Below are positions 18,958 to 64,000 of a DNA stretch of 64,000 nucleotides, one piece after another. The position numbers and the translations under genes are program-made. Each line of letters opens with the position of its first letter. Position 1 is the first letter of the stretch. This DNA is from Gautieria morchelliformis. Its lineage: Eukaryota > Basidiomycota > Agaricomycetes > Gomphales > Gomphaceae. The stretch spans positions 39,069-103,068 of the forward strand of contig WHVA01000417.1 in NCBI GenBank assembly GCA_015179125.1. Direction: 5' to 3'. Below the pieces are notes generated by a model, which saw only the letters and a program-made list of their open reading frames with translations, was not told the origin of the DNA and made no database searches.

Positions 18958-23223
<4,266 letters not shown>

Positions 23224-23785: not shown

Positions 23786-24895
23786 TGATGTAAACCTTGG
23801 ATTACTAGCTCTCAGTGGTGAGTTGGAATGACGTAGGATCAGTTTCACAGCGAGTCAAACCATCAGCGTTTTTCCCGGATCCAACAGACGCTTATGTCGC
23901 TGTCGACGCAATCACGCCAATTTGGCCTCTTACATTCTCAGGTGGCAAACAGGTTATTATCCTAGGGTTTTGTTGGTGAGCTGTACTGACATCCGGGCCC
24001 CTGTGACCTCTTTCATCTGACACACCCTCAACCCAGGCCGCTTGGCTTAGATCCTTGCAATCAGGTTACAGTATTATTGACTTGACAGTTAAGTGGGGTG
24101 TGGTGAGGTAAATGGAATGAACAAAACGTTGCTGCGGTCCAAGTCTTTTTACCGCCAGCCAGTTCGCCTTTTTTTTCCACACCCCTTCCGATGACAGGTT
24201 TCCGCAATTAGCCAGGGAGGCTGTCCACAGACGTTGCTATAGTCCACACCTTCCTTGTTGTCCCACGCTCAACTTTACGGTGATGTTCTGTAATTCTCAA
24301 AATTTATTCAGAATGCTACTTATTCACCGAGATTTGGATCGTGAGCATGCACCAAATGCCTATCTTATAAACTTGTTGGTACAGTACTCAGCGCCCTGTG
24401 AGCATCGGCAGTCCGACTGCCACTGGTAGTCGATGCCGATTTATTAAACCCAAATGGTGGCAATATTTTTGAACTTGGGGGTTGTCTAGCGCCACCACCA
24501 TGACCTACGAAATTACAAGTAGAGCTACTTTACTATGTCGAACAAACAGGAATTACCAGAGGGACACGTTCATTAGTATGCATATTCGAAGATGCATCAT
24601 ACTTCAAGTTGTCGAAGAATACATCCACTTTGAAAATGGTGGCCGTTCTCGTTGGTCTTGCAAAGTTAACTTGATCCTTGTATTCCCGGAGCATAGTACT
24701 GTTGTCTGTACAATCACTACTGTAGTAGTGTAATTCTAGACGAAGATTGTGCGAGTATGCTCAGCGCTCATTAAGCTCATGTTAATAACCTACCGGAAAG
24801 CATAATATAGATGGGACTATGTGGAGTCATGAGGTGCTAGCTGAGATCTCAGATCTCAGCCATTACGATTAATCACAAAATAATACAAGAAAAGA
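23786..24895. other. Non-coding interval upstream of copy A
   Basis: This stretch is AT-richer than the first 17 kb. I see no gene, no long ORF with family features and no clear element termini. Confidence 0.45.
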
Positions 24896-25215
24896 AGTCA
24901 ATCATTCTAGATAGCCCATCCTCTTGGCGTACTCCTGCTGTTCGTCAGTCGTAAGCTCATCCGTGCCTGCCCAATAGTGAGCATTGCTGGACCTCGCTCA
25001 GAATCGGCTGTGACGCGTTTTGAAAATCTCCTCCATATGCAATAGCCACACAGGTCCGAAGATGTTGTCAGGGTTCAGTCGGCACTGAGATTGCAAAGCG
25101 AGTCCCAGCACAGGCGACTGAGCCCAGTCAAGAGGGTCGAATGTGCGTGGATGACCCTCGTCGGAATTTGAGTATCTATTACAAGGCTCAAATCTGGCTG
25201 TAGATGTTCATGGTG
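24896..25215 (-). pseudogene. Degenerate second copy of the INCENP terminal exon
   Basis: This repeats the last exon of the INCENP pseudogene at 25682-25973 and its flanks (ending MGYLE then stop, followed by the same AATACAAGAAAA stretch). It has small indels that break the frame around the RFRARTSSANW block. The copies are separated by repeat R3 and an R2 fragment. It is therefore a local duplication of the 3' end, not a separate gene. Confidence 0.75.
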
Positions 25216-25223
25216 CAAAGGAC

Positions 25224-25655: not shown

Positions 25656-26866
25656 AATATAATACAAGAAAAACAAGTCAATCATTCTAGATAGCCCATC
25701 CTCTTGGCGTACTCCTGCTGTTCGTCAGTCGTCAGCTCATCCGTGCCTGCCCAATTAGCGCTGCTGGTCCTCGCTCGGAATCGGCTGTGACGTGTTTTGA
25801 AAATCTCCCCCATACGCAATGGCTGCACAGGTCCGAAGATGTCGTCAGGGTTCAGTCGGCTCTGAGTTTGCAAAGCGAGTCCCAGCACAGGCGACTGAGC
25901 CCAGTCAGGAGGGTCGAAGATGCGTGGACGACCCTCGTCGTCGGAATTTGAGTATCTATTATAAGGCTCAAATCTGGCTGTAGATCATCATGCTGCAAAG
26001 GACAACGTACTCGCTGTTACTGTTTACATAATGTCAGGCAGCTCGATACTCTCACTCGGGACAATAGGATCCTCCTGTCTGGCTTGCAACATCTGAACTT
26101 GAACTCGCGCTTGCATCTGAGCATGAAGTGTTTGCGAGGGTTGCCGAACGTCTTCCGGGCCATTGAGGGGCACTCCGACCTTGAGCAAGGCAGCGGACTT
26201 AGGCTCTCCTTGGCTGGATCCTACCAACTTGACACTAGGTTGGGAGGCTGAAGCAGGCAGACCAGGCTGTTTAAACGACTTGGTTGTGGAGCTTGATGCA
26301 AGCTGTGACTGGGACAGATATGCATTCAGTGCAAGCTTTCCGATACGAGAGTTTCCCAAGTCTCTTTTATCCTTGGACAAGGGTTTCTTGACCAGCGGTT
26401 TCTTCTCGATCTCTACGACGACTTGGCGCTTCTTAGTGACTTCCTCTTCTGCCTAATTTTGTGGAATATTGTCACACGGCTTCAGGAATGTAAGGTGAAC
26501 TGTTCTGACCTTTTTGACCGTTGTCTTGGCATTTTTCTCGGAAGCCTCCTCACGCTCTCTCTTGTGTCTGTCTCCCGGGTGCTTGCTTTTCTCAGCAGCG
26601 TCTTGATCGGCCTTCTTACATCAGGAAAAACCCGAAATTCTGGTTGCGGCGCCTACCAGCACGTCGCGTCACGTGGTCTACCGTAGCCCACGTAGTCGCG
26701 CGCGTGGCTGCGTAAGTCCACATAGTCCTCCGTGCTCAAACGTCCTTATGTATTATATGTTAGATACATATCCGGGCCCTTTCTACCATAGACATCTGCT
26801 GTCTATGGTCGGCTAGAGTGCAAGCGCATATCTACCATAGAAATACATGGCGCAGACTGTACACAC

Positions 26867-27423
26867 ATGACTGCGCGCGCGTTCGATATCTTCCAGCGCC
26901 CGGACAAGCCTGGCTTCCTTGTTGGTGCCAATGCGCTGGACGTATCCTCCATCGGCTTTGCACTCGGTTTGCTTTCAGACAATGCATCCATTGTCGCAGA
27001 TGCCCATGATCGCGTGCATAACGAGGTGCAGGCGCAGAGTGGGTTCCAGCTTGACGGGATTCAGCAGGATGGGAGTTTCAGTCAGCATCAAGGCCTTTTG
27101 TACAATGGTATGTCGGCTAGGCTGTATTGGAGGATTGTCATGTTGAAAATATAACACAGGAACTTATGGCAAGGATTAGCAGTGCGTGTCCCGTCTGGAG
27201 TTTCATGTTCCGAACTTTGTGTTTCCTTACTAAATGCGTGCTGGCTAGCTCCAATGATGTCTGGGAGTTGGAGATTGAAGCCGGTGGCACGCGTTTCGCT
27301 GCTACAGGGCCATCTAGGACCGCGTTTGAAAACCTTACTATGAACGCGTCCCAGTGGATGATCTACCAGAACACCGTAACGGGTGTCCTCCATTGGGATT
27401 CAGCTACAGGGATGCAGGCTTCC
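26867..27423 (+). pseudogene. Polysaccharide lyase family 8 fragment inside T1
   Basis: PL8 enzymes (hyaluronate, chondroitin and xanthan lyases) cleave uronic-acid polysaccharides. The fragment has DNASIVADAHDRVHNEV, then DGSFSQHQGLLYNG at an intron donor (gt at 27108), a tiny piece GTYGKD after an acceptor at 27159, then NDVWELEIEAGGTRF and WMIYQNTVTGVLHWD. These are typical of the catalytic-domain start and central part. The N-terminal start, the C-terminal half and a valid splice after GKD are missing, and the frame ends at a TGA. It is a captured, broken piece. Confidence 0.7.
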
Positions 27424-27692
27424 TGACGGGCACGTATCTACGCAGCACGCCGCGGGTGGCTCAGCGCAGCGCCATATTTCCTCAGGTATGGCTTTGAATT
27501 GGATGTGCTTCATTTGCGTCTGCATGGCATAAGTATATCTGATGCCCCTGAGGAGGAGGCATGGCCGCAGGGAACTCGGCCATCGATCCCCGTGCTCCAC
27601 TCTAACAGTCATGTGACTGGTTATCTCTAAGCTGCGTCCTTTCTTCTTCCTGACCACCACAACTGCGTACCCGTTCGAGCATACTGACCTCA

Positions 27693-28072
27693 ATGGCTCC
27701 AGCGGCTACCAAACGGAAAGCTCCACAGGAGATCAACCTGACCCAACTCCCCACCCATTCCACTGTGCTAAAGAAAACCTCAACTCACGAGGATTCCAGC
27801 TCGAGGACCCGTCCTCGGTTGGGCCCCGCACCAACCGAAACCCTCATTACCAACCCCAGTTCACGCAGTCGCCTGACCGAAAAAGGACTCGAGTATCGTA
27901 AGTACCATCTATCTTGAGCTATGTGAGTACTCTACCCTGAAATGTGCCAGAAATCCAGGTAGAGGCTGACAAGCAACGACTTACACGTCAATGGGAACGT
28001 CGCCTCACGCGCGAGGAGGAAGCCCGAGCCTTGGATGCGGAGGTTGCGGCTCTTAGGGATGAACGCCAATGA
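27693..28072 (+). CDS. Small two-exon hypothetical protein inside T1
   Basis: Exons 27693-27897 and 27951-28072 join across a 53-nt GT-AG intron and close exactly at a TGA, giving 108 residues. The N-terminus (MAPAATKRKAPQ) is basic and Ser/Thr-rich. The C-terminal 40 residues are highly charged and heptad-like (RQWERRLTREEEARALDAEV), probably a coiled coil. I recognise no family. It may be a captured gene fragment that happens to be open. Confidence 0.45.
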
Positions 28073-28263
28073 TTTCGAGGACGAACCTGGGCCTCAGACA
28101 CATACGTGTTCCTGTGGCCCCAAATATCTACTCATTTTTTTTTCTTTCGTTAGGTCCAGGAAGGATCCAGGCGAACGAGGTCCGTCATCCACATACCCCC
28201 CCCCCCTTTTTTTTTTTTTGGTTATTGCACTCACCTTTCATCTAGTTTGCGTTCAAGGCCACA

Positions 28264-28688
28264 ATGGCGGTTGTCACAGCCGCCTCGAAGCCTTCGGTGT
28301 CCAATGCCATTCGGCGCCAGACAGCCAGCGCACCCGTACCCCTCCGGTCTGTGACGCGCGATGCGGCCCAACCACATCGTCCATCTGCCTCCTCACCAGG
28401 TCCACGTCCTGGCAAGGTCACATGGACAGGACCCACAGAGAACAGGGTCTAGGCCCTGGCGCGTCACCAGCAGCGCCTGCATGATCACGGAGGGTGCGTT
28501 TTTTGCCACCTGTTTATATCTGAACCATTGTCTTACTTCCTGTATCTTGTTACAGCGCGCATGCTGGATTCCCGAACATCGTCACAAACCCTCGAAAGCC
28601 GACGTTCAATGCTGCCAAATTCGCTAATGCCGCCAAATTCGCTCGCGCTGCCCAGGCACTCGATGACGACGAGCACTCGGATAGTTAG
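28264..28688 (+). pseudogene. Exon-like remnant of unknown gene inside T1
   Basis: An acceptor-like pyrimidine tract precedes 28258. A frame beginning MAVVTAASKPSVSN runs to a TAG at about 28450. The same frame then reopens and, across a plausible intron (about 28494-28558), reaches NPRKPTFNAAKFANAAKFARAA and an acidic end before a TAG. It looks like two exons of one gene with a stop between them. No family is recognised. Confidence 0.3.
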
Positions 28689-28907
28689 AGGGCACTAGCT
28701 GCATCCTCGTTCCCGTGCAGAGCGTGTATAATATATGTAAATCTTCCATTTGCCCAATCCCAATGACTGTATTATACCCTATCTGCGTGCCTACACCGGA
28801 ATCCAAAGGCTGCGCCGCCGTTCTATGCAACTATACACGCCGTATGGGCGTAGCTACACACAATATGCAGCCTTGGGGAAATGCTACTGCCCCCTACGTC
28901 GCCTCTC

Positions 28908-29083
28908 TAGTGCCCTGTAGCGGCTGGCCTCAGCGGACTACAAATCCCTACGGAGCTTGGTTGCGTGCTACAGGGCACTACGTCGCGCTACGACGGCAGG
29001 CGGTCGGCTACGGAAGGCTACATGACAGGGGGGGTTGCTACGACGCTAAAGGTGTTACGTGCGCTACGTAAAGCTAAGTAACA
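28908..29083. repeat. Inverted repeats near the right end of T1
   Basis: TAGTGCCCTGTAGC at 28908-28921 is matched by its exact complement at 28967-28980. GGTGTTAC near 29051 is complementary to GTAACACC ending near 29084. GCTAC/CTACG motifs recur throughout. They are probably transposase-binding or structural subterminal repeats of T1. Confidence 0.6.
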
Positions 29084-29639
29084 CCCTCTTTTTTTCCTGA
29101 TGTAGATGCAATTGCGGCCCTTCGTTTGTCCATTTCCCTAAGTCTCGCCGCCTTTCTATCTCTTCTTGTTGCTATCGTGGTATCATGAGTACGTGCAGAC
29201 AGTGCCATTGAAAAACAAACCTTCTTCGCAGCTGCAGCCGCGAGTTGGATGCTCCTGAGGGGTTAGGGTTTGCCCCGCTTGCTGGCCCCCATGGCACTAC
29301 TGACACTGGAGCCCACAACCTTAGATAGAATTATGGACGCCTGAGAAACCAAACCAGGCCGGACAGAAGCCGTCAAGTTTTCTTGGCTGGAACCCCTCGG
29401 ATTTCGCTCCGCTGAGTCCTAGTTGAAAGGCATGAGTGCAGTTTATGGTGGTCATGTAACAATGGAACTATACCGAAGAGGCAGATTCCCCATGGGCTTC
29501 CTCGTGTCGTATGATGGGGTTTTCCTGGCTGGTAGTATATTCTGTTCCGAAGGAAGACTGGGGCCACGTGGACTGACCATCAAATATGGATGTACCATTT
29601 GTGGCACAGCACGGGGTAATCAGAAAGCGAGGTCCAAGG

Positions 29640-30410
29640 CGCAATGTAGGTATACCGTGGCGGCCTACGAGCTCACCGCGCCTGCACTGCAAGACGGCTG
29701 CAGTCTGCGACAGTTCAAACGCAACAACATCTGCAAACGAAACCAGACTCACAATAAATCAGATCCGCCGACACCATTTGGCACGGCGGGCACAGCTAAT
29801 ATGTTTCCAACTGGCAAGCACCGTTGATAACCTTGCAAAGTCCTGATTACCCCTACTTACGCATTTGTTGATCTGCGTGTTCTGGCGAACTTTATACCAC
29901 TGCTGATTCGCAGGTGCCGCCCATTCGCAGCCTCCACTACTGATATACCTTGGCCTACGAGCTAATCGCACTTGCACTGCAAAACGGCACACAGTATCAG
30001 TCGACAGACAGTTCAACACAACATGAACGAGACTTACAATAGTATACTAGGTCAGATCCGCCGAGTCCATTTGTGGGCACAGCTAATATGCTTGCAAATT
30101 GCAAGTACATCCCAAGTCAATCAGTAAATGTGTCCGAGTCGCGCAAATAGGACCGCTGAATATTCACGCATTGAATGACTGGCTGCCGACAATCACCTGG
30201 CGCATTAATGTCACTATACCTTGGCCTACGAGCCAACCGCATCTGCACTGCAAAACGGCACACAGTATCACTGTATACGACAGTTCAAACGCAACAACAT
30301 CTGCAAACCGAACGCGACCCACAATAAATCAGATCTGCCGACACCATTTGTCACGGCGGGCACAGCTAATATATTTCCAACTGGCACGCACCGTTGATAA
30401 CCTTGCATGC
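29640..30410. repeat. Satellite-like array beside NLR gene B
   Basis: Three units are homologous to the array in copy A, starting near 29667, 29952 and 30226. Copy A has at least one more, so unit number has changed since the duplication. Confidence 0.75.
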
Positions 30411-31039
30411 ATGTTCTGATTACCCCCCACCATTTGTTGATCTGCATGTGCCGCCCATTCACAGCTTCCACCCGCTGATGATTGCAGAGGCTCACCGGTC
30501 CAAGCGAACGAAAAATCACCGGTAGATCCATCAGAAATAGAGCCGTGCGCCCGCAGCTCGAAATGGGCTCGCCGGGCTCACGCTAGTAATAAACGACAAA
30601 GGACTCACGGCTCACGCGCACGGCATCCCGCTAACATGCGCGGCATTCGAGAGAAGCAACGAATCTCAAGCCGCCTCCTATTTACGAGACCGCAGCAAGG
30701 ACAGGGACGTCAAGCAGACCGTGACCCGAGTCCGCATTGACCCCTCAAGACGTGAGCCTTTTGGGCCGGAACTTGGTAGGTAGCTCGGAGGATACGCGCA
30801 TAATGCTGAGGGAAGGAAGCAATGTGCAATTTACATGATGGTGGCATAACAATGTTACCTGTAAATCGGAAATACAGGAAACTCCGTGTCGGCCTCGCCG
30901 GGTTCATGCCTCATGTATAGGTCATACACGCTAGATCACAGTGAAGGTCAGCCACGCGACTCAATGAATACTGACGTAGGTGGGCATCTTTGCAGTCCAT
31001 GAAGTAAACACGATGTATTGGGTACACGTAAGCACAAGT

Positions 31040-34000
31040 TTATGCAATAGCTGCTTGGTGCTCCGTGCTGCCTGGCTGGAAGGGCTTGGTTCTTGCTGCC
31101 TTGTGCGCTCGCAGAAGCTCAACAATCGTGGAGTGACCTTTCGACAGCGCCGCCTCCAGCGCCGTGCCGATTGTACCGCCTGGAGCATCCACATCCGCGC
31201 CATTCTCGAGTAGCATCTGAACGATATCGGTGGAGCCATTATACGACGCCGATTGCAACGCAGTTCCATCCTCTCCGCCAAGTGCGTTGACGTCGGCTCC
31301 TTCCTCGAGCAGAAATCGAACCATCGCCGCATTGCCTGGCTTCATCGCGGCCGACTGCAACGCACTGCCAATCTCTCCCTTGCGGGGGTTTACCTGGGCT
31401 CCCTTCTCCAGCAGGAGCCGAACGGTCCCCTCGTGCCCGCGACCCGACGCTGCCTGCAGCGCGTTGCGCCAGTGTGATCCCTGGAAGGTTATATCCGCTC
31501 CATTGTCCAAGAGTAACCGGACAATTCCTTCGTGGCCCTTATATGACGCCGCCAGCAGCGCGTTGCGCCAGAGTGATCCCTGGACGTTTAAATTGACATC
31601 CGCTCCATTGTCCAAGAGTACCTGGACAGTTCCTTCGTGGCCATTAAATGACGCCGCCAGCAGCGCAGTACCATATTCCTTTTCCTCTTCTTGTGCATTT
31701 ACATCCAACCCAGATCTCAACAAATCTTGGCATGTTCGTTTCAGCCCAGCAACCGAAGAGTAATATAGAGGTGAGGCAAAGATTTTCTCGGGGTTGCCTG
31801 GTGCTAGTCCTGCTAGTGCTAGTCCTGCGTCCATGTCTGCATCGTAAAGCCGTACCCAGTTTTTATACATTGCATCTCTGGGCTGAAATAGGGCCATCAC
31901 CAGTCTGTGAAGAGAATCAGATTCACCGTCAGCATCTGATTGAGCATGGTCCATCCACTGTCTGGCCGCATAATCAGAAAGTGGATATGTCCGTCTCGTG
32001 GTTGAGGACACGCAATTATGCTCGCTGAACTGCAACAGATAAGCCAGACATGTTTTGGCAATATACCTGTCAGCAACCCTACGGTTGAAATGATAGTATG
32101 ACAGCTTTGGGTTTTTCTGTAGGTGTTCCGAGGTGAGATATTCTCGGACCGAAAAATGAGCGAGTCTGAGCGAGCTCGCTTCTCTGTCCTGGTTCATCCC
32201 GTCCCCATCCCGATGTACCTTGACCTCCGTGACGACAATAGTGACGAGACTGGAACATATAGTTACTATATTTCGTGGATCCCAAGGCCGTCGGCCTGGG
32301 TCAAATAGCGGACCATCTTCCGCGTCAGGATCGGTGGCCAGTACCTCAACAGCTTCTTCCAGTGATATCGGTCGAACCGCGAATGCGAGCCACTGCAACA
32401 TCCTGAGAGCATCCCGTCTATGTTCCTCGTGAATAGCCGATAGAATTCTATCGTAGGTCTCATATAGTGTCCTTGGTAGAGATTTGAGTGCTTTCCTGAG
32501 CTCGGTCGGAGAGAAACAATTTCGAAGTGCATCTAGCTGGCAAACAGCCCATCGAAACCTTGCTGTCCTGTCAGTACATCTCAGCATAGATGCGCACAGA
32601 CTACATTACATTCCGTGTGCGCCGTTAATCAGTGTACTTTCAATCAATTGCTTCTCTTCTGGTGAGCATCGCCTGAACTTGATATTATGATCAAGTGTCT
32701 TGCACACATGGGTACGGATGTCATCGTCGACTAAACACGCGTCCATGGGCACTTGGTGTGAAATGAGGGTATCCAATGTTTCTTCAATGTCACGGTCCCT
32801 CCGACTACTTGCCAGCATGTGTATCGTGTCAAGACCCCAACCATGGATCTCTCGAAGCATGGTCAGCAGCTCGTCTCTTTGTGGACATTGATCAAGGGCG
32901 TCGAACACAATATAGACGTTCTGAAAGGTACCGATGATGGCCTTGAGGGTTGCCATCAGCTGCTCTGGAGTTGGGGGTCGTCCTTCTTCGTTCGCCTCGA
33001 AAAGCTTCGCTAAGGCGACGGGGATGGTTGGGCGCTGCAAAGACAATTGCTTTATGGAGGATCGAAGGGCATCATTCGGCCGCGTGTCGCTGCTGCGGAA
33101 ATCAAAATAGAAATACACGAACGCGACCGATGGATCCAGCTGGCAGCGACGAGATACGTCTTCAATGATAGTGGAGCTTGAGGGCACATTCGTTAGCTAG
33201 AAGGCGATAAATCTCAACCAGCATGATGTACTTACCATAGAACAGTCTTTCCAGCGCCGGCTAACCCACTATTTGAATGGCACGACTCAAACAAGCTGGA
33301 TAATAGAAAACTCACGTATCCCATGAAGCCATAAGAATGAATTGGCCATGTTTGTCCATTCGTGGAAATCGTCACCCCCCAAAAACCATGTGCCGGTCGC
33401 CTCCTGTCGCTCCTTACAGACATTCGTATGTTTTGAGTGGTGCTCGGGAGGCGATATCCAATCGTGGATTTTTGCCGTTGCTCCGCTATACAAGGACCCC
33501 GCAGGATGAGGCATAATGACACCACAGGGTAACAGAAACATTAAACATACTTAATCTTGCAACAGCAGCCTCTTTTTGCAATTCTTCCACTCCGGTAGGT
33601 ACCGTTTCGACTCCTGTATGTCCCAATGTCAATCGTCTGAAAGGTTGTCAATGAGTTTGCCTACAAGGGAGGGGGTGTAACATACGTCTGATCTGCGTTC
33701 AAGGCTGCGCTTAAGAGCTGCTGAAACTGTCCTAGATACTCGAGAGACTTCCTTGCTTCGCCCTCTTTGAATGGCCAGATCAGCGCTTGCATGCGACGAT
33801 TAGCCTCTAACTTCTTGTGGAGAGTTTCAATCTCGGCCTGACACCGCGGAAGGCCATCGGGATCTTTTAGCAGCTTGCTCAAAGCAGGTAATCGAGATGA
33901 TGCGTTGGTTTCATCATCCGTTGGCGATCGGAGAGATGTATCCTGGTCCACAAGTTCCACTAGCTCTTCCACTTCAGCTAGGACTCCTTGCAGTCCCATC

Positions 34001-34143
34001 AACAGATCGCGCAGCTTTTTCTTATCTTTGGACGCATTCTTGACACCATTTCCGTAATTGAAACATGTCGTGATAGTTGCTGAGGTGAGCTGAAGAACGC
34101 CAATGATGCTCGCTGATTGGTTGGTTAGCATACGAGCAGACAT
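31040..34143 (-). CDS. NACHT-ankyrin (NLR/STAND-like) gene B, intact frame, Walker B variant
   Basis: It has the same architecture as gene A, with an unbroken model: exons 33686-34143, 33551-33636, 33316-33480, 33236-33260, 32610-33176 and 31040-32567, giving 942 residues. The N-terminal 150 residues are helical, with a hydrophobic first segment (SASIIGVLQLTSATITTCFNY) as in HeLo-like or SesA-like fungal NLR domains. The P-loop GAGKTVL comes from the 25-nt microexon. Walker B reads VYIVFDALDQC; the expected glutamate is glutamine here and Glu in copy A. About seven ankyrin repeats follow, and the C-terminus matches gene A. The acceptor of exon 3 differs from a simple copy of gene A (CCCTGTAG there is CCCTGTGG here), but an AG a few bases downstream keeps the frame. 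The T2 transposon begins 125 bp upstream of the ATG. Function in non-self recognition or cell death is family knowledge, not shown here. Confidence 0.85.
33236..33260 (-). other. 25-nt microexon carrying the P-loop of NLR gene B
   Basis: It is identical in length and position to that of gene A, with introns of 55 and 59 nt on either side. Retention of the upstream intron would end the protein shortly after WLHGI, leaving only the N-terminal region. Confidence 0.8.
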
Positions 34144-35460
34144 GCCATAAGTCCCGTCAACTTGCCCGCTAATCCAAGCTCTGCCATAACATCGAGTTGG
34201 TGGTTGTTGTAACAGCTGAGACCAGCGCGCAGTGAATAAATACTTGGTTGTGGTGGCGCCTACCGTGGCACTGTTGGTAGTCAACCCAATGAATCCTATT
34301 GGGTGGACCCACTGAGGATTCAGTATATAAACCATTATAGCTAGTGTAAATACCAACAGAACCTGTTGAAACTTCAATGAATCGGTTTCAGTGGAAAAAG
34401 TTTCGTTTCAATGAGTTGGTTTCAGGGGTTGACTCATGGGTATTCAGGGATCCTACAACGGAAGACCAATGGATTGAACCAGGCATTTCGAGTCGACGAC
34501 CACTGGGTTCCCGTGAGATAGTCACTTACGACCCCGTGGTTCTATCACCACATTTCAGAGATGCAGCCACTGAATGTCACTGGCCTGAGATCTGAATAAT
34601 ATGAGGCAAATCACTGAAGATTCATGAAATTTGTAGTGAATGCTAGGTTGTATAGCTATGAGTTTTCAATGGTTATTGCCTTGCAATCTTGTTCAAATGC
34701 CATGGGATACCAGTTAAACTTCCCCATTATTTCAAGTCATAAATGAATATATACAAGGGAAAATACAGATGAAACATAAGGTGAAAATCACTAAAATACC
34801 GCTTTCCAATCCGTGAAACCCATACCAGGGTGCTTCAGTGGAGCGGCAGAATAGCGATGAAACCTTGACTCAGCCTGCGTTCATTTGATATCTGTGCCAA
34901 ATAATGGTCAGCGTGTAAGTGCTCCTGACTGTGGCAGCATCTGAGACATGTATTGGCATGCCTGTGGGGAGGGGAGGGGAGATCGTGAGCAAGATGCTAT
35001 TTTTGATGTGATAACCCAGTGGACTGCCGGCGAAAGGAGCTGATCAAGAGTACGAGTGGAGGGTCAGAAAAGAACGGACACGACGTACGCGGCTTCGTTT
35101 TCGACACAACATGCTCGACAGACCGTGCGTCCACGAACGGTGTGCATCTGTGCTTGGCGATGCAAGACATGAGAGCAATGCAAGACACAAGAAAAAGTAT
35201 ATGACCTGCATAACAGCTGGTACCAAAAAGAAAAACAGAATCAGTCGTGGCTAGCAACCCCCACCGTCAGCTGCACGCACCCGACTCATGCTCAATGATC
35301 GCTACCTTGGGGGATTCCGCCAGCTCCCACGCCGCATCCCTGAGGCAATCCTCCGGTACAACGTGTCCGAGTCCACAATCAGGATAAGCTCGCCCACACG
35401 TATGGCGCGCCCGTTCGCTGCCCACGGCATCCACCGCCGCCCGATCTCCTCAAACGTCTC

Positions 35461-53801: not shown

Positions 53802-54152
53802 TGTAAATAACCCGTGTATCTACATGTACATTAGTTATTACATAATCCCAGTGGGCCCCTTAGGGACCCACTGTATAGTTTATGCGTGGGAACCGGCCAG
53901 CGGTCCCCATTGCATCTTACCCTTACACTGTCACTACGTAGCATCAGAATACCACACATTGGTCAAGTTCTGTCGTGCTCTTGTGACCTGAGGCTTAAGA
54001 TAGATATCTTTACACCTTTTTGAACTATCCTGCGGTTGATCGCCACGCGACCAACCGATAGTGGATTCGAAGCAATCTTGAAAAAGATCGCTGCGTTGAC
54101 AACTAAACATTGTTGAGACCCTCCAGTAGACCCTCTACTGTCGGCTGCGAGC

Positions 54153-57100
54153 ATGATGATTCCACGCAGTCGAAGACGGACCCGAGCGACGAGCTTGAGG
54201 TCCACACCCCAGGCGCAGCTCAGTGACACGACGGCTGACGCTATCCTGGACCAAGAGACCAGGACGATAGAAGACGGAGAGATCATAGATCTCACTGCCC
54301 TCGTCCCCTCAGCAGAGGACGAGGAAAATCCCAACCACGTCTCGTCGAGCGTGGCTGAAGAAGAGACGACGCCGGGCAACGAGCCGGCGCCGCCCCCCCA
54401 TCTCTCTCTGCCCAAAGACAAAGGAAAGGGCAGAGAAGTCTCGCCGTCGTCGGACGGTAGAGCAACAACGTCAAGACGGGCACAAAGCCACGACTCAAAC
54501 AGATGCTCACGAAGTAGAGCGACGACGATCGTCCCTGAAGGAGGACGACGGCAAAAGAGACGAGCCCCAGACGATGGTCAGGACTCAGAATACTCAAGCT
54601 CTAGTCGCAAGAGCTCAAGGGCTCACGCCATCGACCACGAGATGGCAGAGGCCCTGAACAAACAGGTGCAGGCTGCGCTGCACCGAAGTATGCTGATGCG
54701 CCACAAGCATGATCAGCTGGCATCACAGCTTGACAACGCCGCCGCCGCCCTAATGGCAATCGGCAAGGAACTCCACCAGGCGGAGGAGGTCAGGCTGCAA
54801 GACGCAGCCACGCTGGAGGACGTCCAGAAAGCACTCCACCCACCCGGGGAACGCGACGCAACTCGTCTGAGCTCGCGACAGTCCGCAGCTAACGAACGCA
54901 GTCGCGACGTGCGCCGAAAGGAGCGAGACAAGCAGCGAATGCCGCCACCAGCTGTCCCGGTCAAACAGGACGTAAGGTTCGGGAACGAGCCTCAGGAACA
55001 ACCGGCTGCCCCAACGGACAGCCGTAAAACGATCCAACAGATCATTAGGGATCAGGTCACCTCAGGGCCTGACTCTGAAACGATGACCGAGAGCTTAGAG
55101 CTCGAAGTCGCACACTGGCAGCGTAAAGAAGCCGCAGCCGCACGCCGCCACACACGGGCACTCGAGCTACTAGCGAAGAACGCTGAAGAAACGGTGGCCC
55201 ACAGCCACACCACTCAACTACCCGACGAGCAGCTCACGCAAGCCGTACAAGACGCACGGCAAGCGCGCGCAGCCTACAACAGCAGGCTACGGATCCGCAA
55301 CGCGGGACTGACCGGGGACACCAGGCACAAAACGCCCCCAGAACCGAGAGCACAAAATGCTCCCGATCCCGAGCCCAATCCGGGCCCGGGGCCCGTCAGG
55401 GCATATAACAGCCTGCCCCGCGCGGCGTCACAACCGCGCGAGCGATCCATGGCCCCAACGGAAGGCCAGGGAATCCCTGACCAGGCCGACATCGTACCAA
55501 TGGAGCCGTACGACGGGATCACACGGATTATCTGCGTGGCGTTAGCAGACGCCGCGGACACAGACCCGGAGAAGTCTGTGCTAGCAAAGGCCGGCGTAAA
55601 ATTGGCCCACCCCGAACCATATGCAGGGGGATCGGACCTCGAAGAGATTGAAGTCTTCGTGGCAGCCATCCTACGATGGCTAAAAATGAATTGCCTCCTA
55701 GGGCCAACCAGCATTGACACGCAGGTCGGCTATGTGGGCACTCGCCTCACCGGCGAAGCCCAGGAATGGTTCCTTCGAAACGTTGAACGCTTCGATCGCC
55801 AGGTCCACAGCTGGACGCTGGAATCTGTGATGCAAGGCCTTCAAAAGAGGTTCCTGCACACACTGACATACCATCATGCATCGAATAAGTTCGACGCGGT
55901 CATGCAAGGCATGAAAACCGTTCAGGAGATGCTGAACGAGCTCACGAAATACGCGGCACGTATGATACAGCCGCCAGACGAGTACATGTTCCGGAGACGG
56001 TTCGTATCGGCGCTGCGCGAAACACTGCGCAACGAAGTCCTCAAAAAGGGCTATAATGCCGAGAGCAGCTCAATAGAGCAACTCTTCGAGACGGCCCGGA
56101 TGATCGAGGAGGCATCCCAATACAACATGGGGATGCGCCGCGCAGAAAGCGTGGCAGCAACGGCAAGCGCCGCCCGGCTCACAGGGAGCAAGCCGTTGAC
56201 ACAAATGGGCCTGACCAGGCCCAGCCTGTTCGCAAGAAGCAGAACAGGTCAACGGCTACCGCCCTCACGCCCAGCACAAGCTGGACGCCCGCCTGAAGCT
56301 AAACAGCCTCAAGCATCAGGATCGTCCCCGAGACCTGCCCCACCGACGAAAACATCGGGCCGGCCCAACGACAGGCCCAGCGGCAGCCAAAGCAACACCA
56401 CATGCTTTGAATGCGGCCAAGCTGGCCACAAGAAGGCAGAATGCCCCTGGCTTAGGTCCGGTATAAGGACAGCGGCCGTGAGGTACGACGGTGAAGCCGA
56501 GGATCCGGAGACGGATCCTGATCAAAACTCTCTTCAACAGATTGATGAAGAGGGGGAGGGTGATCCCCAACCCAATGACACTCCGGATAACGGAGACACG
56601 CCCACTGAAGAGTGGGACCCTGAGCCGTCCCAATACTATGAATGGGACGAAGAGGTGGAGGACACCACCTACAGGTCCAGCGTGATCAGATTCGCGCTGG
56701 AAGACGAAACCGCCACGAAAGTCATGGCGGCACGCACATCGGTCACGCCAGACAAGGCGGCCGAGCCGGTGTATCACCACCGAAGCAAACACAGAACGCG
56801 GCCAACGCGTCCACGTAGTGAGAACCGTACCCTATGGGGGTACTGGGAAATAAACGGCGTAAAAGCCCACTGCCTGCTAGATAGCGGCAGCGAAGGGGTA
56901 CTGCTGTCCCCCGAATTCACGCAAGCTACAGGGATGAAGACATTCTCCCTGGAGCAACCAATCACGCTGCAGCTAGCCTGCATAGGCAGCCGTTCCATGA
57001 TCAACTATGGAACGAACACGACCATCAAGTTTGGTCGCGGGACATACGACGAATACTTTGACATAGCAAACGTCGAATATTACGACGCGATCTTAGGGAC

Positions 57101-57281
57101 ACCGTTCCTAAGGAGATTTGGCATAACCCTGGACTTCTTGAGCCCAGGGACGATCCGCAAGGGAAATGAAGTGATCCCCACAGGCAAGGTCTCATTCGAC
57201 GACGACGAATCGAAGAACGAGGACAAAGGGCCACGGGTGAGCAGGATCACCCAAGCGCCGACGCCGAACCTGGCTCATTGA
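54153..57281 (+). CDS. Retro 2 gag-protease, open frame of 1042 residues
   Basis: The start ATG at 54153 (MMIPRSRRRTR) gives a long basic, disordered N-terminal 450 residues with RE/KE-rich coiled segments. A Ty3-type capsid follows (PEPYAGGSDLEEIEVF, YVGTRLTGEAQEWFLR, FDAVMQGMKTVQEML, around residues 480-660). Then come a CCHC knuckle CFECGQAGHKKAEC (about 750) and a retropepsin domain with DSGSE (about 910) and ILGTPFLRRFG. The frame is open throughout, unlike pol. The stop at 57279-57281 precedes the RT frame by 77 nt and in another frame, so pol would need its own start or a bypass. Confidence 0.85.
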   Translation: MMIPRSRRRTRATSLRSTPQAQLSDTTADAILDQETRTIEDGEIIDLTALVPSAEDEENPNHVSSSVAEEETTPGNEPAPPPHLSLPKDKGKGREVSPSSDGRATTSRRAQSHDSNRCSRSRATTIVPEGGRRQKRRAPDDGQDSEYSSSSRKSSRAHAIDHEMAEALNKQVQAALHRSMLMRHKHDQLASQLDNAAAALMAIGKELHQAEEVRLQDAATLEDVQKALHPPGERDATRLSSRQSAANERSRDVRRKERDKQRMPPPAVPVKQDVRFGNEPQEQPAAPTDSRKTIQQIIRDQVTSGPDSETMTESLELEVAHWQRKEAAAARRHTRALELLAKNAEETVAHSHTTQLPDEQLTQAVQDARQARAAYNSRLRIRNAGLTGDTRHKTPPEPRAQNAPDPEPNPGPGPVRAYNSLPRAASQPRERSMAPTEGQGIPDQADIVPMEPYDGITRIICVALADAADTDPEKSVLAKAGVKLAHPEPYAGGSDLEEIEVFVAAILRWLKMNCLLGPTSIDTQVGYVGTRLTGEAQEWFLRNVERFDRQVHSWTLESVMQGLQKRFLHTLTYHHASNKFDAVMQGMKTVQEMLNELTKYAARMIQPPDEYMFRRRFVSALRETLRNEVLKKGYNAESSSIEQLFETARMIEEASQYNMGMRRAESVAATASAARLTGSKPLTQMGLTRPSLFARSRTGQRLPPSRPAQAGRPPEAKQPQASGSSPRPAPPTKTSGRPNDRPSGSQSNTTCFECGQAGHKKAECPWLRSGIRTAAVRYDGEAEDPETDPDQNSLQQIDEEGEGDPQPNDTPDNGDTPTEEWDPEPSQYYEWDEEVEDTTYRSSVIRFALEDETATKVMAARTSVTPDKAAEPVYHHRSKHRTRPTRPRSENRTLWGYWEINGVKAHCLLDSGSEGVLLSPEFTQATGMKTFSLEQPITLQLACIGSRSMINYGTNTTIKFGRGTYDEYFDIANVEYYDAILGTPFLRRFGITLDFLSPGTIRKGNEVIPTGKVSFDDDESKNEDKGPRVSRITQAPTPNLAH

Positions 57282-57358
57282 AGCCAGGAGGACGAGTCGC
57301 GGGACGACTCGTCCTCGAACTCGCCCTACAGTCGTAGGGGAGACGCTCTCACCTAACG

Positions 57359-60300
57359 GTGAAAGCGATGGGAAAGAGGAAAGTGGGCCTGTGCGCCGCA
57401 GGACCTAATAGACGCCAACAGCGCCTAATGGCTTCTAAGCCAACCACTACCATCATCCTCACGGATGATGACCTTCCTCGCCTCCGCGAGGAATGGATGG
57501 AAAGAATCACTGACCTAGTCAGTGGAATTCCATTAGAACTCCCGCCACTGCGGGAGATCAACCATGAGATCAACCTCATCGATCCCAACAAGCACATGCG
57601 GTATCGACTACCGAAATGCCCCGAACACTTCTGAGAGGAACTGTCGGCAAAGATAGAACAATACACCACGGCAAAGTGGTGGATTCCGGCAGTAGCACAG
57701 CAGGCAGTGCCCATGCTGTGTGTGCCGAAGAAGAACGGTACGTTGAGAACCGTCTTCGATCTGCGCCAGCAGAACGAAAACACGGTGAAGGACGTCACGC
57801 CCTTCCCGGATCAGGATATCATACGCAGCGACATGGCTCGCTGCCGATATCGAACTAAACTCGATATGTCAGAAGCATACGAGCAGATCCGGATCCATCC
57901 AGATCACGTAGCAAAGACAGCCTTTGCCACGATCCTCGGCACCTTCAGGAGCCAGGTGATACAGATGGGGGACTGTAATGCCCCATCAACATTCCAACGG
58001 CTGATGACAGCCATTTTCCACGAGTGCATAGGTCGCTTCGTCCATGTATACATGGATAACATCTTCATATTCTCGCTCTCAATACAAGAGCATGAAGAAC
58101 ACCTCTACATCGTCTTTGACAGACTGAGGAAGAACCACCTCTTTCTGAGCAAGAAAAAGGTGGACCTCTACTCCATCCGAATGGAGTGCCTCGGCCATAT
58201 GATCGATGGCCGAGGGGTACATGCCGACGAGGATAAGATGCAACGCATCCGCGAGTGGCGCAGACCACGGATGTTCAACGACATCCAGCGTTTCCTCGGG
58301 CTCATACAGTATCTGGCACACTACATGCCGGATGTTAGCGCATATACCACCCCGCTATCGGCTGTGCGTGTAATAACCGTCCATTCGAATGGACGCCACT
58401 GCTTGACAAATGCTGGCAAAGCATTAAGGCGTTGGCCTGTAAGGCCCCGATCCTGTGTCCAGTAGACGCAAGGTGCCCAGAGCCGATCTGGGTGATCACC
58501 GATGGATCAAAAGCCGGCATCGGTGCGGTCTACGGCCAAGGTCCTGACTGGAAAACTTGTCGACCAGCCGGCTTCTTGTCAAAGAAGTTCAGCGTTGCTC
58601 AGCAACACTACCAGACTCACGAGCACGAGACTATCGCGGTGCTCGAGGCTCTCATGAAATGGGAGGACAAACTGCTGGGGCGAAGGTTCACCCTCATCAC
58701 AGGCCACAAGGGACTCGAGTACTTCGAGACCCAAAAGAGCCTATCTGACCGACAGGTCAGATGGTGGGAGTTTCTCTCCCAGTTCAATTTCAACACCGTA
58801 GAGAACAAGGTAGCGGACTGCCTGTCACGCTACTACGAGAGCGACACGAGTGATGACAATCACCCGGACCACGTCTTCGTGAACGCGGATGCGCGTTTAG
58901 ATCCGGACGGTGAGTTATTGCCCACCGACCGGTATGTCGAGCTGCGAACAGCGGCGACAAGACGCTCTAAACGCCTCGCTGAGAAGACAGAGGCGAGAGT
59001 AACGGAAGCCGCCGCATTAAACGAGGGCTCACCAGAGCCCGCGAACGTCGCCGCGTCCAGCGACAACGACGATGACGTCAGAGCCATCGCCGCAGGAATG
59101 ACGGCGCACCCCTGCGCTGGATCGTCGAGCAAGGTGTAGACCTGTCTAAGGTCCTACGAGACGCGTACCATAGGGACACCATGTTCACAAAGATCATGGC
59201 ACACCTGGACGCGCACCCGAGATTCGGGATCCGGGACGGGCTGATCTGGACTAAGAATCAGCTCAAGAGAGATGTCATTGCCGTCCCCCACTCTGTTCTT
59301 CAAGGGGGAAGGAGGCTGATCGAAATTATCATCGATCGGGCACATCAGATAGTCGGCCACTATGGCCATCTGAAGACTTCGAACTACGTTCGAAGAGCAT
59401 ATTGGTGGCCGGCATGAACCCAGACATAGAAGCGTTCTGCACATCGTGCGCGAGGTGCCAGATGACGAAAACTGGGCCACAACGGCCCAAAGGCCTACTA
59501 CACAGCCTACCCATTCCGGATAGGCCGTGGCAGTCGATTGGCATCGACTTCATGGGGCCCCTGCCCAAATCCAATACCTGATGGTAGTCATCAACCGACT
59601 AACGTCGCTCGTACACCTCGTGCCAACCACGACAAGTGTGTCAGCCAAGGGAGTAGCCTGGCTGTTTCTGAAAGAGGTCATCCGACTGCATGGAGTTCCC
59701 GACTCCATCGTCTCGGACAGAGACTCAAAGTTCACGTCGATCTTCTGGCGTGAACTCCAGCGACTCATGGGGACTAAGCTCCTCATGTCAACTGCCTTCC
59801 ATCCACAAACGGATGGAGCAACCGAGCGGGCAAACCGCTCGATCGGCCAGATATTGCGCGCGGTCATCAGAGACGATCAGAAGGATTGGGCAGTGAAATG
59901 CCCAATGGTTGAGGTCGCCCTCAACAGCAACATCAGCGCGACCACAGGATTCACACCTTTCGAGCTGAACCACGGCTATATGCTGCGGATAGACCTCCCC
60001 ATATCCACGGACACCCCGTTCAAGGGGGTGGCCCGATTCGCACATCAGGCAAAATGGAACCTGATGGCGGCACACGATGCAATCATAGAGCATCGAGTGA
60101 CGCAAATGTTTCACGCAAATAAGAAACGTATGGCGAGCGACAGGTACGCGGCCAACGACCGCGTCTACCTTTCGACACAAAACCTAACTCTCCCGAAAGG
60201 AAGAGCCAGAAAACTAGTCCCACGGTACATCGGACCGTACCACGTCATCGAGGCTCACAACGACCCCTCGACGGTGACCCTTGATCTTCCGACGAACTGA

Positions 60301-60614
60301 AAAGCCGTCGCATTTCACCGGTCTTCCATTCCAGCCTCGTATGGCGATACGAGGCTAACAACGACGAATTATTCCCTCGTCGTGAGGCCAAGTCATTTTA
60401 TGACTTCGGAGCAAATGACGACGAGGAGTGGCTCGTCGATGAGATTATCGCACATCGATGGATAAACTCGACGGACCTGGAATTCCAGGTCCATTGGACC
60501 CTAGGCGACATGACATGGGAACCCATGTCGTCCTGCAAGGACCTTGAAGCCCTGGATAGCTATCTAGAGCTTCGGGGGGTGGGCAAGCCATGCAACCTCC
60601 CCAGACGCCGCTAG
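57359..60614 (+). pseudogene. Retro 2 pol: RT, RNase H, integrase, chromodomain; multiple breaks
   Basis: RT: LREINHEINLIDP, MLCVPKKNGTLRTVFDLR, TKLDMSEAYEQIRI, and YMDN where YMDD is expected. RNase H: WVITDGSKAGIGAVYGQ and VADCLSRYYES. Integrase: zinc finger H-H-C-C around AHQIVGHYGHLK and CTSCARCQ, then IDFMGPLP, IVSDRDSKFTS and GATERANRS (D, D and E present). The chromodomain EEWLVDEIIAHRW...VHWTLGDMTWEPMSS ends at TAG 60612-60614. Breaks: TGA at 57632 (CGA expected) and single-base frameshifts near 58365, 59110, 59415, 59565 and 60290. The chromodomain would direct integration to methylated heterochromatin in an active relative. Confidence 0.85.
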
Positions 60615-60737
60615 ACGCGTCTGTCACATGCAGGCCACGTGACGCGCCGGCCACGGCACGGTTAAATTTTCACCTCGGATCTTTCCGAGGGCGCATCGCT
60701 TCTTGGAAGCAACCACCACCATCATCTACCCACGAAG

Positions 60738-61861
60738 ATGATGCCCCCCAAAGATGGGATGGACGTTGACCCATCAACGTCCACAACGCGAACAACGGCC
60801 CCGAGACAAGGGGCCGCAGACATTCTCCGTGCTCCGATAGACCAGGAGCACTGGATGATCGTGGGATGGGAGGATGCCCTCGCCATCGTCCACCCGGACG
60901 ATTGCGCAACATGCGCGGACTACGCCGTGCACCTTAGGGCCACGACCGGCACCCGCAAGGTCAAATTGCGGGACGAAGACATCGGCGACGCCGTCGATGC
61001 AGCTTGGGGATGGCTCCCAAGGGGCATCGCGCACGACGCGCGAGAAGAGCCCCTCCGGGACGTCCACGACCTCAAAAAGAGGTCAAGGAGCTAGAACGCA
61101 CGGTCGAGGACCGCGACGATGCGCTCGTAACCGAGCGCGCCAGGATCAAGGAACTGGAGCAGCAGCTGAGTGCATCCCAGCTCCAGGTTACCCTGGTCCA
61201 CGCTGCTTGAAAAGGCCGCGACATGACCCGGCCACAGACCCAGTGGCCGGGCCATCTTCACCTCGCGCGACGGCGCCGTTGCCGGCGCGCGCAACATCGG
61301 GGCTCGCGTCCCGATTGTCGCGCCAACTCCGACCACGACAACAACGGAAGGTCAGAGCGCACCTTCCGACTCTGCGTACGGCGTCCCAGATGGATGGGAG
61401 TCCGACTCGTCCGTCTGGAAGACGTACGACCCCAAACAGGCACAGCGGCTGGCAGAGCAGCCAAAGAAAAAGCGCAAGAAATTGCGCGGCTCCCTCCACA
61501 CCGTCAATGGGCTAGCCATTGCGAAGGAAAGCGCAATCAGCGCTTACCTAGCGGCGTCATCGTCGCACACCATCAACGACCCCGCCCTTCAGCGGCGGGT
61601 AGCACAGGTCGAGTACATCGGGCTGGCGTGGCCCTACCTCCGCCGGCGGGGACAGTTGAGTCGGTTCATCCTCCCTACCCGGGGGAGGGAAGGCTATCCC
61701 ACTCGGAGATCCACCGATCTCCGAGACAGGCCTCCTACCACGACCGGTAGGAAAGGCCCAACAAGTCGTACCCAATGGTACGACGTCTGCCCGCTCGACG
61801 AACCCCGCTTCGTCGAACTCATAGCGCGGCAAAAGAAACGCCGCAGATGCGCGTAGCGCGA
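60738..61861 (+). pseudogene. Accessory coding region 3' of the Retro 2 chromodomain
   Basis: The first frame (60738, MMPPKDGMDVDP) has a folded-looking part (EHWMIVGWEDALAIV, DAAWGWLPRG), then shifts into LKKEVKELERTVEDRDDALV, a clear coiled coil (to about 61209). Further frames give YGVPDGWESDSSVWKTYDP and, at 61482-61856, NDPALQRRVAQVEYIGLAWP to RQKKRRR. Codon and base composition match the gag ORF of the same element. At least two frameshifts separate the pieces. No family is recognised; position suggests an extra 3' ORF of the retroelement. Confidence 0.5.
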
Positions 61862-62032
61862 GATGATCGGCGTATTCAAACGCATCGAGCGGAACAACGC
61901 CTCGCAATCCCAAAAGGGATTGTCTCGTGATAGCGGGCGGTACCCCGCACGACATCGCGGCCATTCTAAGGGTTGGATACACAACCCTGAAGGAATCCCT
62001 CCGCCATCCGTGACAACGTGGTGGCACCTTTC

Positions 62033-63504
62033 TGTTTTGGAACCCGTTGAACTAAACGTAAAAGTGTGGTGTTAAACACAATTCTAAAGTTCAATCAGAG
62101 ATTTGACTTTACAAGCACACGCAAGCTTCGAAACTATTTTAACGGAGAACCAATTAAGAAATTATACTCCAGTAAACAATCAGAATCAGTATTGGTACAG
62201 GAAGTGTAGCAATAGAGATTTAACTGAACACGTGTAGTTCTTAGATTGTGCAATACTTTGTGAGGTCAAAGAATGTTATTAGGCGTCCAAGGGTCCAGAT
62301 ACTTTAAGGGGAAAGCTACCTAGAGTCTTAGGACGCGGGTCGAGTGAATTAAAGACAACAATAATCCCCAAGATGTGAAAAGATAGTTCTGCGCTTGAAC
62401 TCTTCCTCAGTTCAAGTATGTCACTATTCTTGTGGCTTTTCTGGTTTTCCAACTCAACAAACGTAGGATATTAACTCACTTACCCTGAGTTAGGTTAATA
62501 TCTGCAGTGCGTTGATTGATCAAGAAAGATCAATTACTCAAAAGGCTATTAACCCACTTAACTCAGAGTTAAGTTAATAATCTATTGCGTGAATTGAATA
62601 ACTAATAACCAAGTCTATTAGATCACTGCTCAGAGTGGCGTCTAATGGTACAGGATTACTAATCAGTTACTCTTAGTAATGTTGCTGTTCGCAGCACGAT
62701 TATTCAGAGCCTGCTGCAATTAAAATAGAGCACTCTTGTACTTCTCAGAGCCAATCAGAGTTGCTGCAATCTAGACTGTAGCCAAGTCAGTGAGCCAGTA
62801 CTTCGGTACAAGGCTGTGAAGTCACACTTCAGTTACTCAAGGTATGAGTGGTTTGGGTGAAAGATATTGATTGCTTCACTGCTAAAACTGCAGGCTTATT
62901 TATACTGCATCTATCTAGCTTATGTAACTACTGCCAGGGAACCTTGTAGAGGCTTCTACTAATGTGAAGAACCTTGTGAAGCTTAGAGAAGCTTCAGGAA
63001 AGGTTTGGAAACTATTGGAAGGCTGTGGAAGGTTCTATTGCTATATTGGGTTAAAGTCACAGCTCTGTGACAGTAAAGCTAAGAGTATGTAAGAAACTCC
63101 CACGCTCATGTGATTATCATGTGACAAAGGAAAGTCATGTGACTTCATGCTGGATTGAGGTCATGTGACTGTGTCATGTGATTGTCAGGTACCGTAGATA
63201 ATCAAGTGACTTTGAGGTCAGGTGATTGTCAGGTGACTGTAGATAATCAGGTGACTTTGAGGTCAGGTGATTGTCAGGTGACTGTGGATGATCAGGTGAC
63301 TTTGAGCTGTTTTTGAGGTCATTGATAGTCATGTGACCGTGGGGGATTCTTAGCTAAACTATCAAGAGATTGTTGTATCTTGTGGACCCAATGTGAGTGT
63401 AGCATAGAAATATTAATACAACCTTCCTTGAGGACATTTGAAACTAATTAACTACCTAGTAAATGTTCATAAATAGGTAGCTACTTTGTGGACGATCCCT
63501 AACA
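62033..63504. mobile_element. Non-coding LTR-type insertion in the Retro 2 accessory region
   Basis: This is an AT-rich 1.47 kb block in GC-rich surroundings. It starts TGTTTTGGAACCCG, like the element at 44336, and ends GATCCCTAACA. The flanks CTTTC/CCTTC match at four of five bases, and the sequence on either side rejoins (GTGGCACC...TTCAACC). It contains several AATATTAACTCACTTA...GAGTTA near-palindromes (62470-62600) and a tandem array near 63180-63310. No protein was found. Confidence 0.7.
63180..63310. repeat. Tandem repeat of about 46 bp
   Basis: About three units contain GTGACTTTGAGGTCAGGTGATTGTCAGGTGACTG then TAGATAATCAG or GGATGATCAG. They lie inside the insertion 62033-63504 and are rich in CAGGTGA / TCACCTG motifs. 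Confidence 0.8.
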
Positions 63505-63888
63505 CCTTCAACCTAGACAACATGGACATCTGGATGTGGTTGAAGGCCCTTGCACCCCGGGTCAAAGGGGTCGCATCACCGCTCAGGGCGAGGCTACTCG
63601 ACCTCTTCGGCTCGACGGACCAATGGTCGAGCCTCGTCGACGCAGGGAAGTGCTGACGCCTCAGAGCACCACCCTGCAGCTCTCAATCACGGGCCCATTC
63701 CCTGTGGAGGGCCGAGCCGGCCCCGACATCCACTCGCGGAGATCGCGAGATGGTTGGCCCGCTACGCGGGAGTCACTCGCGAGCGAGCGGCACGCATTGA
63801 ACATTACGTTCAGCGCAGCATGACCAGCGCGGCATTCAGCGCCGCCGCCCGTGAGGGCCAACAAAGGTCATCGAGACCAGCCATGTGA
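63505..63888 (+). pseudogene. Continuation of the Retro 2 accessory region
   Basis: GC composition returns to that of Retro 2. One frame gives IWMWLKALAPRVKGV and RARLLDLFGSTDQWSSLV before a stop near 63655. Another gives EIARWLARYAGVTRERAARIEHYV up to SSRPAM and a TGA near 63886. The pieces are helical and basic; I do not recognise them. The plus-strand orientation matches the upstream ORFs. Confidence 0.35.
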
Positions 63889-64000
63889 GGGCCGCGGTGC
63901 CGTGACCCCTCACTCACGCTCAGCTCCGACCAAGAGCTGGCGCGCTTCCGGCCCCCTCCTCAAACAGAGGACCCGGCCGTTGAGGCCATGCTCCGCGAGG

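What the first reader, a model, noticed from the sequence alone, without database searches (positions are those of the whole stretch)
25682..29588. Dead INCENP gene whose exon is restored in frame by removing a TA-flanked element
Seen: minus-strand exons around the IN-box (PPDWAQSP, NPDDIFGP, RFRARTSSANW) continue upstream only if 26619-29102 plus one TA is removed. The join is in frame and the element has perfect 12-bp TIRs. Known: INCENP is an essential single-copy partner of Aurora kinase, so a dead copy implies an intact one elsewhere. Inference: a duplicated INCENP was hit by T1, then lost its 5' part at the duplication junction and collected a nonsense codon and a 1-nt loss.
Basis: partly seen in the sequence, partly recalled or inferred. 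Interest (0 to 1): 0.75.

Follow-up and report, generated by a model that had tools for sequence, protein, structure and literature searches.

The report
Truncated INCENP copy broken by transposon
In a mushroom genome, a duplicated and truncated copy of the cell-division gene INCENP is interrupted by a small DNA transposon that itself carries a stolen piece of an unrelated enzyme gene, while the annotated INCENP gene lies nearby with an uninterrupted site; it is a well-documented but largely ordinary case.

Summary
Window 25682-29588 (minus strand) is the 3' part of an INCENP gene (IN-box PF03941), interrupted by a 2,484-bp element (T1, 26619-29102) with perfect 12-bp inverted repeats and a TA on each side. 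A 96%-identical homologue on contig C981 has the unoccupied site, one TA, in frame. C981 carries the annotated INCENP of Gautieria morchelliformis. One Gypsy insertion, with matching 5-bp target duplication, spans the two contig ends: the gene lies about 42 kb away, same strand.

Corrections. (1) TA is not the family's signature: 14 of 18 members examined have matching 2-bp duplications of varied sequence. T1 fits non-autonomous PlavakaB (CATCA..TGATG ends; related elements hold a Plavaka transposase). (2) The 5' end is a blunt duplication breakpoint, so the copy was probably born truncated. (3) The '1-nt loss' is a 4-nt deletion; an 11-nt insertion was missed. (4) C981's gene has an apparent 1-nt frame break, possibly an assembly error, and its deposited model skips the 33 residues around the T1 site, which eight relatives keep as protein.

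T1 carries about 540 bp, intron included, of the only polysaccharide-lyase-8 gene found: a Pack-type element. New member of known kinds.

The parts
25682..26618 (-). INCENP copy A, part 3' of the T1 insertion (IN-box at 25799-25945; stop codon at 25682-25684)
   Evidence: PF03941 56.7 bits; about 96% to C981
26619..29102 (.). T1, non-autonomous PlavakaB-type element, 2,484 bp, 12-bp TIRs CATCAGGAAAAA; TA duplicated at 26617-26618 and 29103-29104
   Evidence: terminus and TSD definition from passages of PMC12730594
29103..29588 (-). INCENP copy A, part 5' of the T1 insertion, truncated at the duplication breakpoint 29588/29589
   Evidence: about 96% to C981:265343-265832; blunt junction
26865..27400 (+). 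captured fragment of a polysaccharide lyase family 8 gene inside T1 (match to the donor-like gene begins at 26852), intron included
   Evidence: 93% to C553 over 549 columns; PF08124; absent from sister elements C12, C206, C250
29265..29265 (-). nonsense change GAA to TAA relative to C981
29160..29162 (-). place of a 4-nt deletion relative to C981
26019..26029 (-). 11-nt insertion relative to C981, C173 and C670; brings an in-frame stop just before an intron donor
24873..25223 (-). INCENP fragment B, a second partial copy (91% to C981:266435-266786)
   Evidence: PF03941 45.6 bits
17313..29588 (.). duplication unit 1 (repeat-bearing ORF block plus the INCENP 3' part)
29589..34268 (.). start of duplication unit 2 (copy of 17313-23348, 88-92% with gaps)
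53802..64000 (+). Ty3/Gypsy element whose 5' LTR is at 53802-54014; it continues onto C981, where its 3' LTR has the same 5-bp target duplication ATCTC

Best explanation
A stretch holding a neighbouring gene block and the 3' part of INCENP was duplicated in direct orientation with a blunt join inside INCENP, which left a 5'-truncated INCENP copy about 42 kb from the annotated gene (duplication and breakpoint shown; a tandem event and the order of events inferred). That copy was hit by T1, a transposase-less PlavakaB element that duplicated TA on insertion and must have been moved by a transposase supplied in trans (insertion and unoccupied homologous site shown; trans-mobilisation inferred from related elements that hold a Plavaka transposase). 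The copy also collected a nonsense change, a 4-nt deletion and an 11-nt insertion, so it is a pseudogene. T1 belongs to a subfamily that arose when an older element took up about 540 bp of genomic DNA from a polysaccharide lyase 8 gene (donor-like gene and elements without the fragment shown; copying mechanism unknown).
For: IN-box and homology; unoccupied site with single TA in C981; coding nature of the site from eight relatives; T1 repeat family; 14 of 18 copies with matching 2-bp flanks; PlavakaB definition, 2 or 3 bp TSD and CATCA..TGATG (passages of PMC12730594); PF18759 within TIR-bounded relatives C572 (253 bits) and C367, and by coordinates C207, C271, C340; PF18759 not reported within T1; PL8 fragment and donor-like gene; contig adjacency by a shared Gypsy insertion with ATCTC on both sides and 99.4% end overlap; blunt junction.
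Against: No transcripts, reads or other strains were examined. The C981 gene is not clean: apparent 1-nt frame break, bridged by a predicted intron in the deposited model, which also leaves out the 33 residues around the T1 site. The tandem reading leaves about 37 kb of other sequence between unit 2's start and the C981 gene, with only small shared pieces in between. Codon changes are few: of 25 coding differences 14 could be assigned, C981 6 silent to 1 replacement, copy A 4 to 3, too few to prove different constraint. 4 of 18 elements lack matching 2-bp flanks, and C164, a 6.4-kb TIR-bounded element, shows no PF18759 match.
Confidence: 0.92

Rival explanations
1. T1 lies in, or is spliced out as, an intron and the region is a working INCENP gene.
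For: The deposited model of the C981 gene has a predicted intron that covers the T1 site.
Against: Eight relatives keep that stretch as protein; the reading-direction ends of T1 (TACATC..GATGTA) are not GT..AG; copy A lacks the 5' part and has a nonsense change, a 4-nt deletion and an 11-nt insertion.
Confidence: 0.03
2. T1 is a TA-specific element such as Tc1/mariner.
For: TA on both sides at this locus; one further copy, C146, also has TA.
Against: Other copies have AA, AT, TG, GG, AC and CC repeats; the termini and transposase of related elements are Plavaka.
Confidence: 0.01
3. The truncated copy is still used: its intact last exons could encode an IN-box peptide that binds Aurora kinase as a decoy.
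For: The IN-box frame has no stop in any of the four matches, although at least three of them lie in damaged or partial copies; A against C981 dN 0.012, dS 0.052.
Against: Young copies keep short frames by chance; no promoter or transcript evidence; C173 and fragment B are likewise partial.
Confidence: 0.03
4. The INCENP copy is a dispersed segmental duplication rather than a direct tandem one.
For: About 37 kb of other DNA now separates unit 2's start from the C981 gene; other INCENP relics are dispersed on C173, C102, C670 and C238.
Against: Same strand, same neighbourhood, and unit 1 and unit 2 start at the same base at the INCENP breakpoint.
Confidence: 0.25

Closest known systems
PlavakaB DNA transposons (CACTA/EnSpm-Mirage-Chapaev-Transib group), as defined in PMC12730594 (passages seen)
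   Same: 5'-CATCA..TGATG-3' termini, 2-bp target duplications, relatives in the same genome with a Plavaka transposase (PF18759)
   Different: T1 has no transposase and no TET/JBP gene was looked for; it carries a host gene fragment; placement on the transposase tree was not tested
Pack-TIR elements (PMC8277862, abstract and outline seen)
   Same: TIR element with a captured host gene fragment, several copies, donor-like gene elsewhere
   Different: fungal and Plavaka-type; the mechanism was not tested
Histone H3 capture by a hAT element in Pseudocercospora fijiensis and relatives (PMC6710886, abstract and outline seen)
   Same: host gene sequence captured and multiplied by a fungal DNA transposon, original gene kept
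   Different: other superfamily, hundreds of copies and RIP there; 9 loci found with the PL8 fragment here
INCENP (IN-box family PF03941)
   Same: IN-box, SANW tail and gene structure shared with C981 and other basidiomycete proteins
   Different: the copy lacks the 5' part and is broken

Membership tests
PlavakaB (non-autonomous member) | termini 5'-CATCA..TGATG-3' | tested here: met
   CATCAGGAAAAA..TTTTTCCTGATG; definition
PlavakaB (non-autonomous member) | 2 or 3 bp target site duplications | tested here: met
   2-bp match in 14 of 18 elements, 3-bp in 0 of 18; single TA at the unoccupied site
PlavakaB (non-autonomous member) | Plavaka transposase (PF18759) | tested here: not met
   none reported inside T1; present in TIR-bounded relatives C572 and C367. 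T1 is therefore filed as non-autonomous only
PlavakaB (non-autonomous member) | transposase groups with PlavakaB on a tree | not tested
   no tree was built
Pack-TIR element | host gene fragment between the TIRs, with a homologous gene elsewhere | tested here: met
   PL8 fragment, 93% to C553, intron kept; C553 extends beyond the fragment on both sides
Pack-TIR element | fragment-bearing element copied by transposition | tested here: met
   fragment in 9 loci; matching 2-bp flanks at T1, C758, C399, C286 and C726, not at C287; C1096, C427 and C326 were not examined for flanks
Tc1/mariner | target duplication always TA (recalled) | tested here: not met
   TA in 2 of the 14 elements with a matching 2-bp repeat
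INCENP | IN-box (PF03941) | tested here: met
   56.7 bits over cut-off 22
Pseudogene | disabling lesions relative to a homologue | tested here: met
   truncation, nonsense, 4-nt deletion, 11-nt insertion, T1
Pseudogene | no functional product | not testable with these tools
   no transcripts or proteins held

The most novel reading that the evidence does not exclude
Non-autonomous PlavakaB elements of Gautieria are a gene-capturing (Pack-type) family, and the captured polysaccharide-lyase exon is still used, for instance in chimeric transcripts: its 80-codon stretch can be aligned in 9 of 9 loci, 7 of them without gaps, and replacement differences among copies are fewer per site than silent ones (0.025 against 0.056).
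Probability: 0.1. Interest if true: 0.5.

Novelty: new member of a known kind. Interest (0 to 1): 0.3.

Why it matters
It is a clean natural case, with the unoccupied site, donor-like gene and transposase-bearing relatives all in one assembly, of a Plavaka-type element that has taken up a host gene fragment. Gene capture by fungal DNA transposons is in print for hAT, and capture of TET/JBP genes by Plavaka is too; my text searches for Plavaka with gene capture and CACTA with gene capture and mushroom listed no paper. It also shows how an essential gene can shed truncated copies without harm while one gene stays.

Tried and rejected
Tc1/mariner reading of T1: rejected by varied 2-bp flanks. T1 as a spliced intron: rejected for this copy by independent lesions and by relatives' proteins, although the deposited C981 model has a predicted intron there. 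Reading the 99.4% end overlap of C468 and C981 as proof of adjacency: set aside at first, because the overlap lies wholly inside a many-copy Gypsy element (45 matches listed, 33 of 1,953 candidates scored); the shared 5-bp target duplication then decided it. In that overlap there are 38 gaps (37 of 1 nt, one of 3 nt; 27 in runs of one base) and 8 mismatches in 8,096 columns, so single-nucleotide frame breaks in this assembly need not be real. Direct LTR search in the window found nothing because the second LTR lies on the other contig. Rfam: no match in the window. The 11-nt insertion could be a transposon footprint (TA-TGTAAACAG-TA); not resolved. Literature searches for INCENP pseudogenes in basidiomycetes gave no paper that holds the term INCENP among the ten listed; searches gave the two capture papers cited. 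Other INCENP relics (C173, C102, C670, C238) were mapped but their origin was not worked out.

Full report
What the window is. The window is the end of contig C468 (C468:39069-103068) of a 122-Mb assembly. The best protein match to the INCENP homologue on C981 is JB92DRAFT_2906603 of Gautieria morchelliformis, on a contig of 282,502 bases, the length of C981. The organism is thus this truffle-like mushroom.

The observation. Copy A of INCENP runs on the minus strand from 29588 to 25682 and holds the IN-box. T1 (26619-29102) interrupts it, with perfect TIRs and a TA on each side. C981:265343-267220 is about 96% identical and has a single TA at the site. C670 also reads across without T1. The site is an exon: eight relatives (P0012, P0016, P0019, P0024, P0027, P0029, P0035, P0063) out of the 77 proteins align through the residues around it. 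Against this, the deposited Gautieria protein leaves out 33 residues there, by a predicted intron; I take this for a model error. P0004 and P0005 end their match just before this stretch.

The second gene. PF03941 matches four places in the genome: C173, C981 and two in the window. C981 is the only one whose reading extends to an INCENP-like start; C173, A and fragment B are partial. In C981 the frame breaks once by 1 nt, in a run of C at about 264520; the deposited model bridges it by an intron, but relatives have protein at that place (P0002; P0016, P0019, P0035). The assembly has single-base gaps: in the 8,096-column overlap of the two contig ends there are 38 gaps and 8 mismatches. So the break may be an error; I cannot tell without reads. 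Codon comparison of A and C981: 14 silent and 11 replacement differences in 396 codons, dN/dS 0.23. Fourteen could be assigned by a majority of the other relics: C981 6 silent to 1 replacement, A 4 to 3. Eleven (4 silent, 7 replacement or nonsense) could not. This leans to constraint on C981 but is small.

Where the gene lies. The overlap of the contig ends lies inside a Gypsy element (RT, RNase H, gag and integrase domains) with many other copies at up to 96% (only the best 33 of 1,953 candidates were scored). The 5' LTR at window 53802 is preceded by ATCTC; the 3' LTR on C981 is followed by ATCTC. This is one insertion seen from its two ends, so the contigs adjoin. The annotated INCENP then lies (64000-29588)+(274417-266756), about 42 kb, from copy A on the same strand.

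How copy A arose. The homology to C981 ends at 29588 and the copy of 17313 onward begins at 29589, with no shared base at the join. Unit 1 and unit 2 agree at 88-92% with gaps, and 93-98% in the ungapped pieces listed for most of the two-copy families. A direct duplication with one end inside INCENP explains the missing 5' part without a later loss. That it was tandem is inferred; about 37 kb of other sequence now follows unit 2's match. Fragment B (91%) and small pieces at 23517-23592 and 38897-38974 point to older INCENP fragments in the same place.

What T1 is. 18 elements were examined for flanks: 14 have matching 2-bp repeats (AA, AT, TG, GG, TA, AC, CC), 0 a 3-bp repeat; the four without are C367, C287, C206 and C12, the last two nearly the same sequence. 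A 2025 paper describes PlavakaB: 2 or 3 bp target duplications and termini CATCA..TGATG (PMC12730594, passages seen). Left-end and right-end searches gave 46 and 38 places. The 6.5-kb element C572, with the same ends, holds a PF18759 transposase (E 5e-75), and C367 too; by coordinates alone matches also fall within C207, C271 and C340. The 6.4-kb C164 element shows none. T1 has none. T1 is a non-autonomous member.

The captured piece. T1 236-784 (window 26852-27400) is 93% identical to C553, minus strand, with the intron. C553 is the only place with PF02278 matches and the only PF08124 match outside the T1 family. C553 reaches beyond the fragment on both sides. The sister elements C12, C206 and C250 have T1 1-248 and 785 onward with other sequence of about 360 bases between. 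So the fragment was taken up from DNA, not from mRNA. Nine loci have the 80-codon exon stretch, 7 without gaps (C287 and C427 have gaps); against the host gene they show 4-7 silent and 4-11 replacement differences. This does not show use.

Verdict. A real, well-resolved case of an ordinary kind: a truncated duplicate of an essential gene hit by a non-autonomous transposon. The less expected part is the host gene fragment inside a Plavaka-type element. Searches for it in print; none listed a Plavaka element with a captured gene other than TET/JBP, but only listings and the cited passages or abstracts were seen.

Noticed in passing
window 26852-27400: T1 carries a fragment of a polysaccharide lyase 8 gene with its intron; donor-like gene at C553.
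   Followed up: yes
window 24873-25223: Second, older INCENP fragment (91%) next to copy A, with a further small piece at 23517-23592 that suggests an insertion of about 1.3 kb between.
   Followed up: partly
C173, C102, C670, C238 (L005, L041, L039, L040): Four further loci with partial INCENP homology at 77-93% to C981: the gene has shed fragments repeatedly.
   Followed up: partly
window 17313-23348 and 29589-34268: Duplicated block with many 99-base-spaced repeats (ankyrin-like by eye, not tested).
   Followed up: partly
window 53802-64000: Ty3/Gypsy element cut by the contig end; two LTRs differ at 3 of 213 positions across the two contigs.
   Followed up: yes
window 55936-64000: Single-base gaps relative to C981 (37 of 1 nt), most of them missing in C468: unpolished contig end.
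   Followed up: yes
window 26019-26029: 11-nt insertion flanked by TA, possibly a transposon footprint.
   Followed up: partly
window 12001-13000: Local G+C of 77%, far above the surroundings.
   Followed up: no
C12 and C206; C1096 and C427: Pairs of nearly identical T1-family loci on different contigs, perhaps duplicated or allelic contigs.
   Followed up: no
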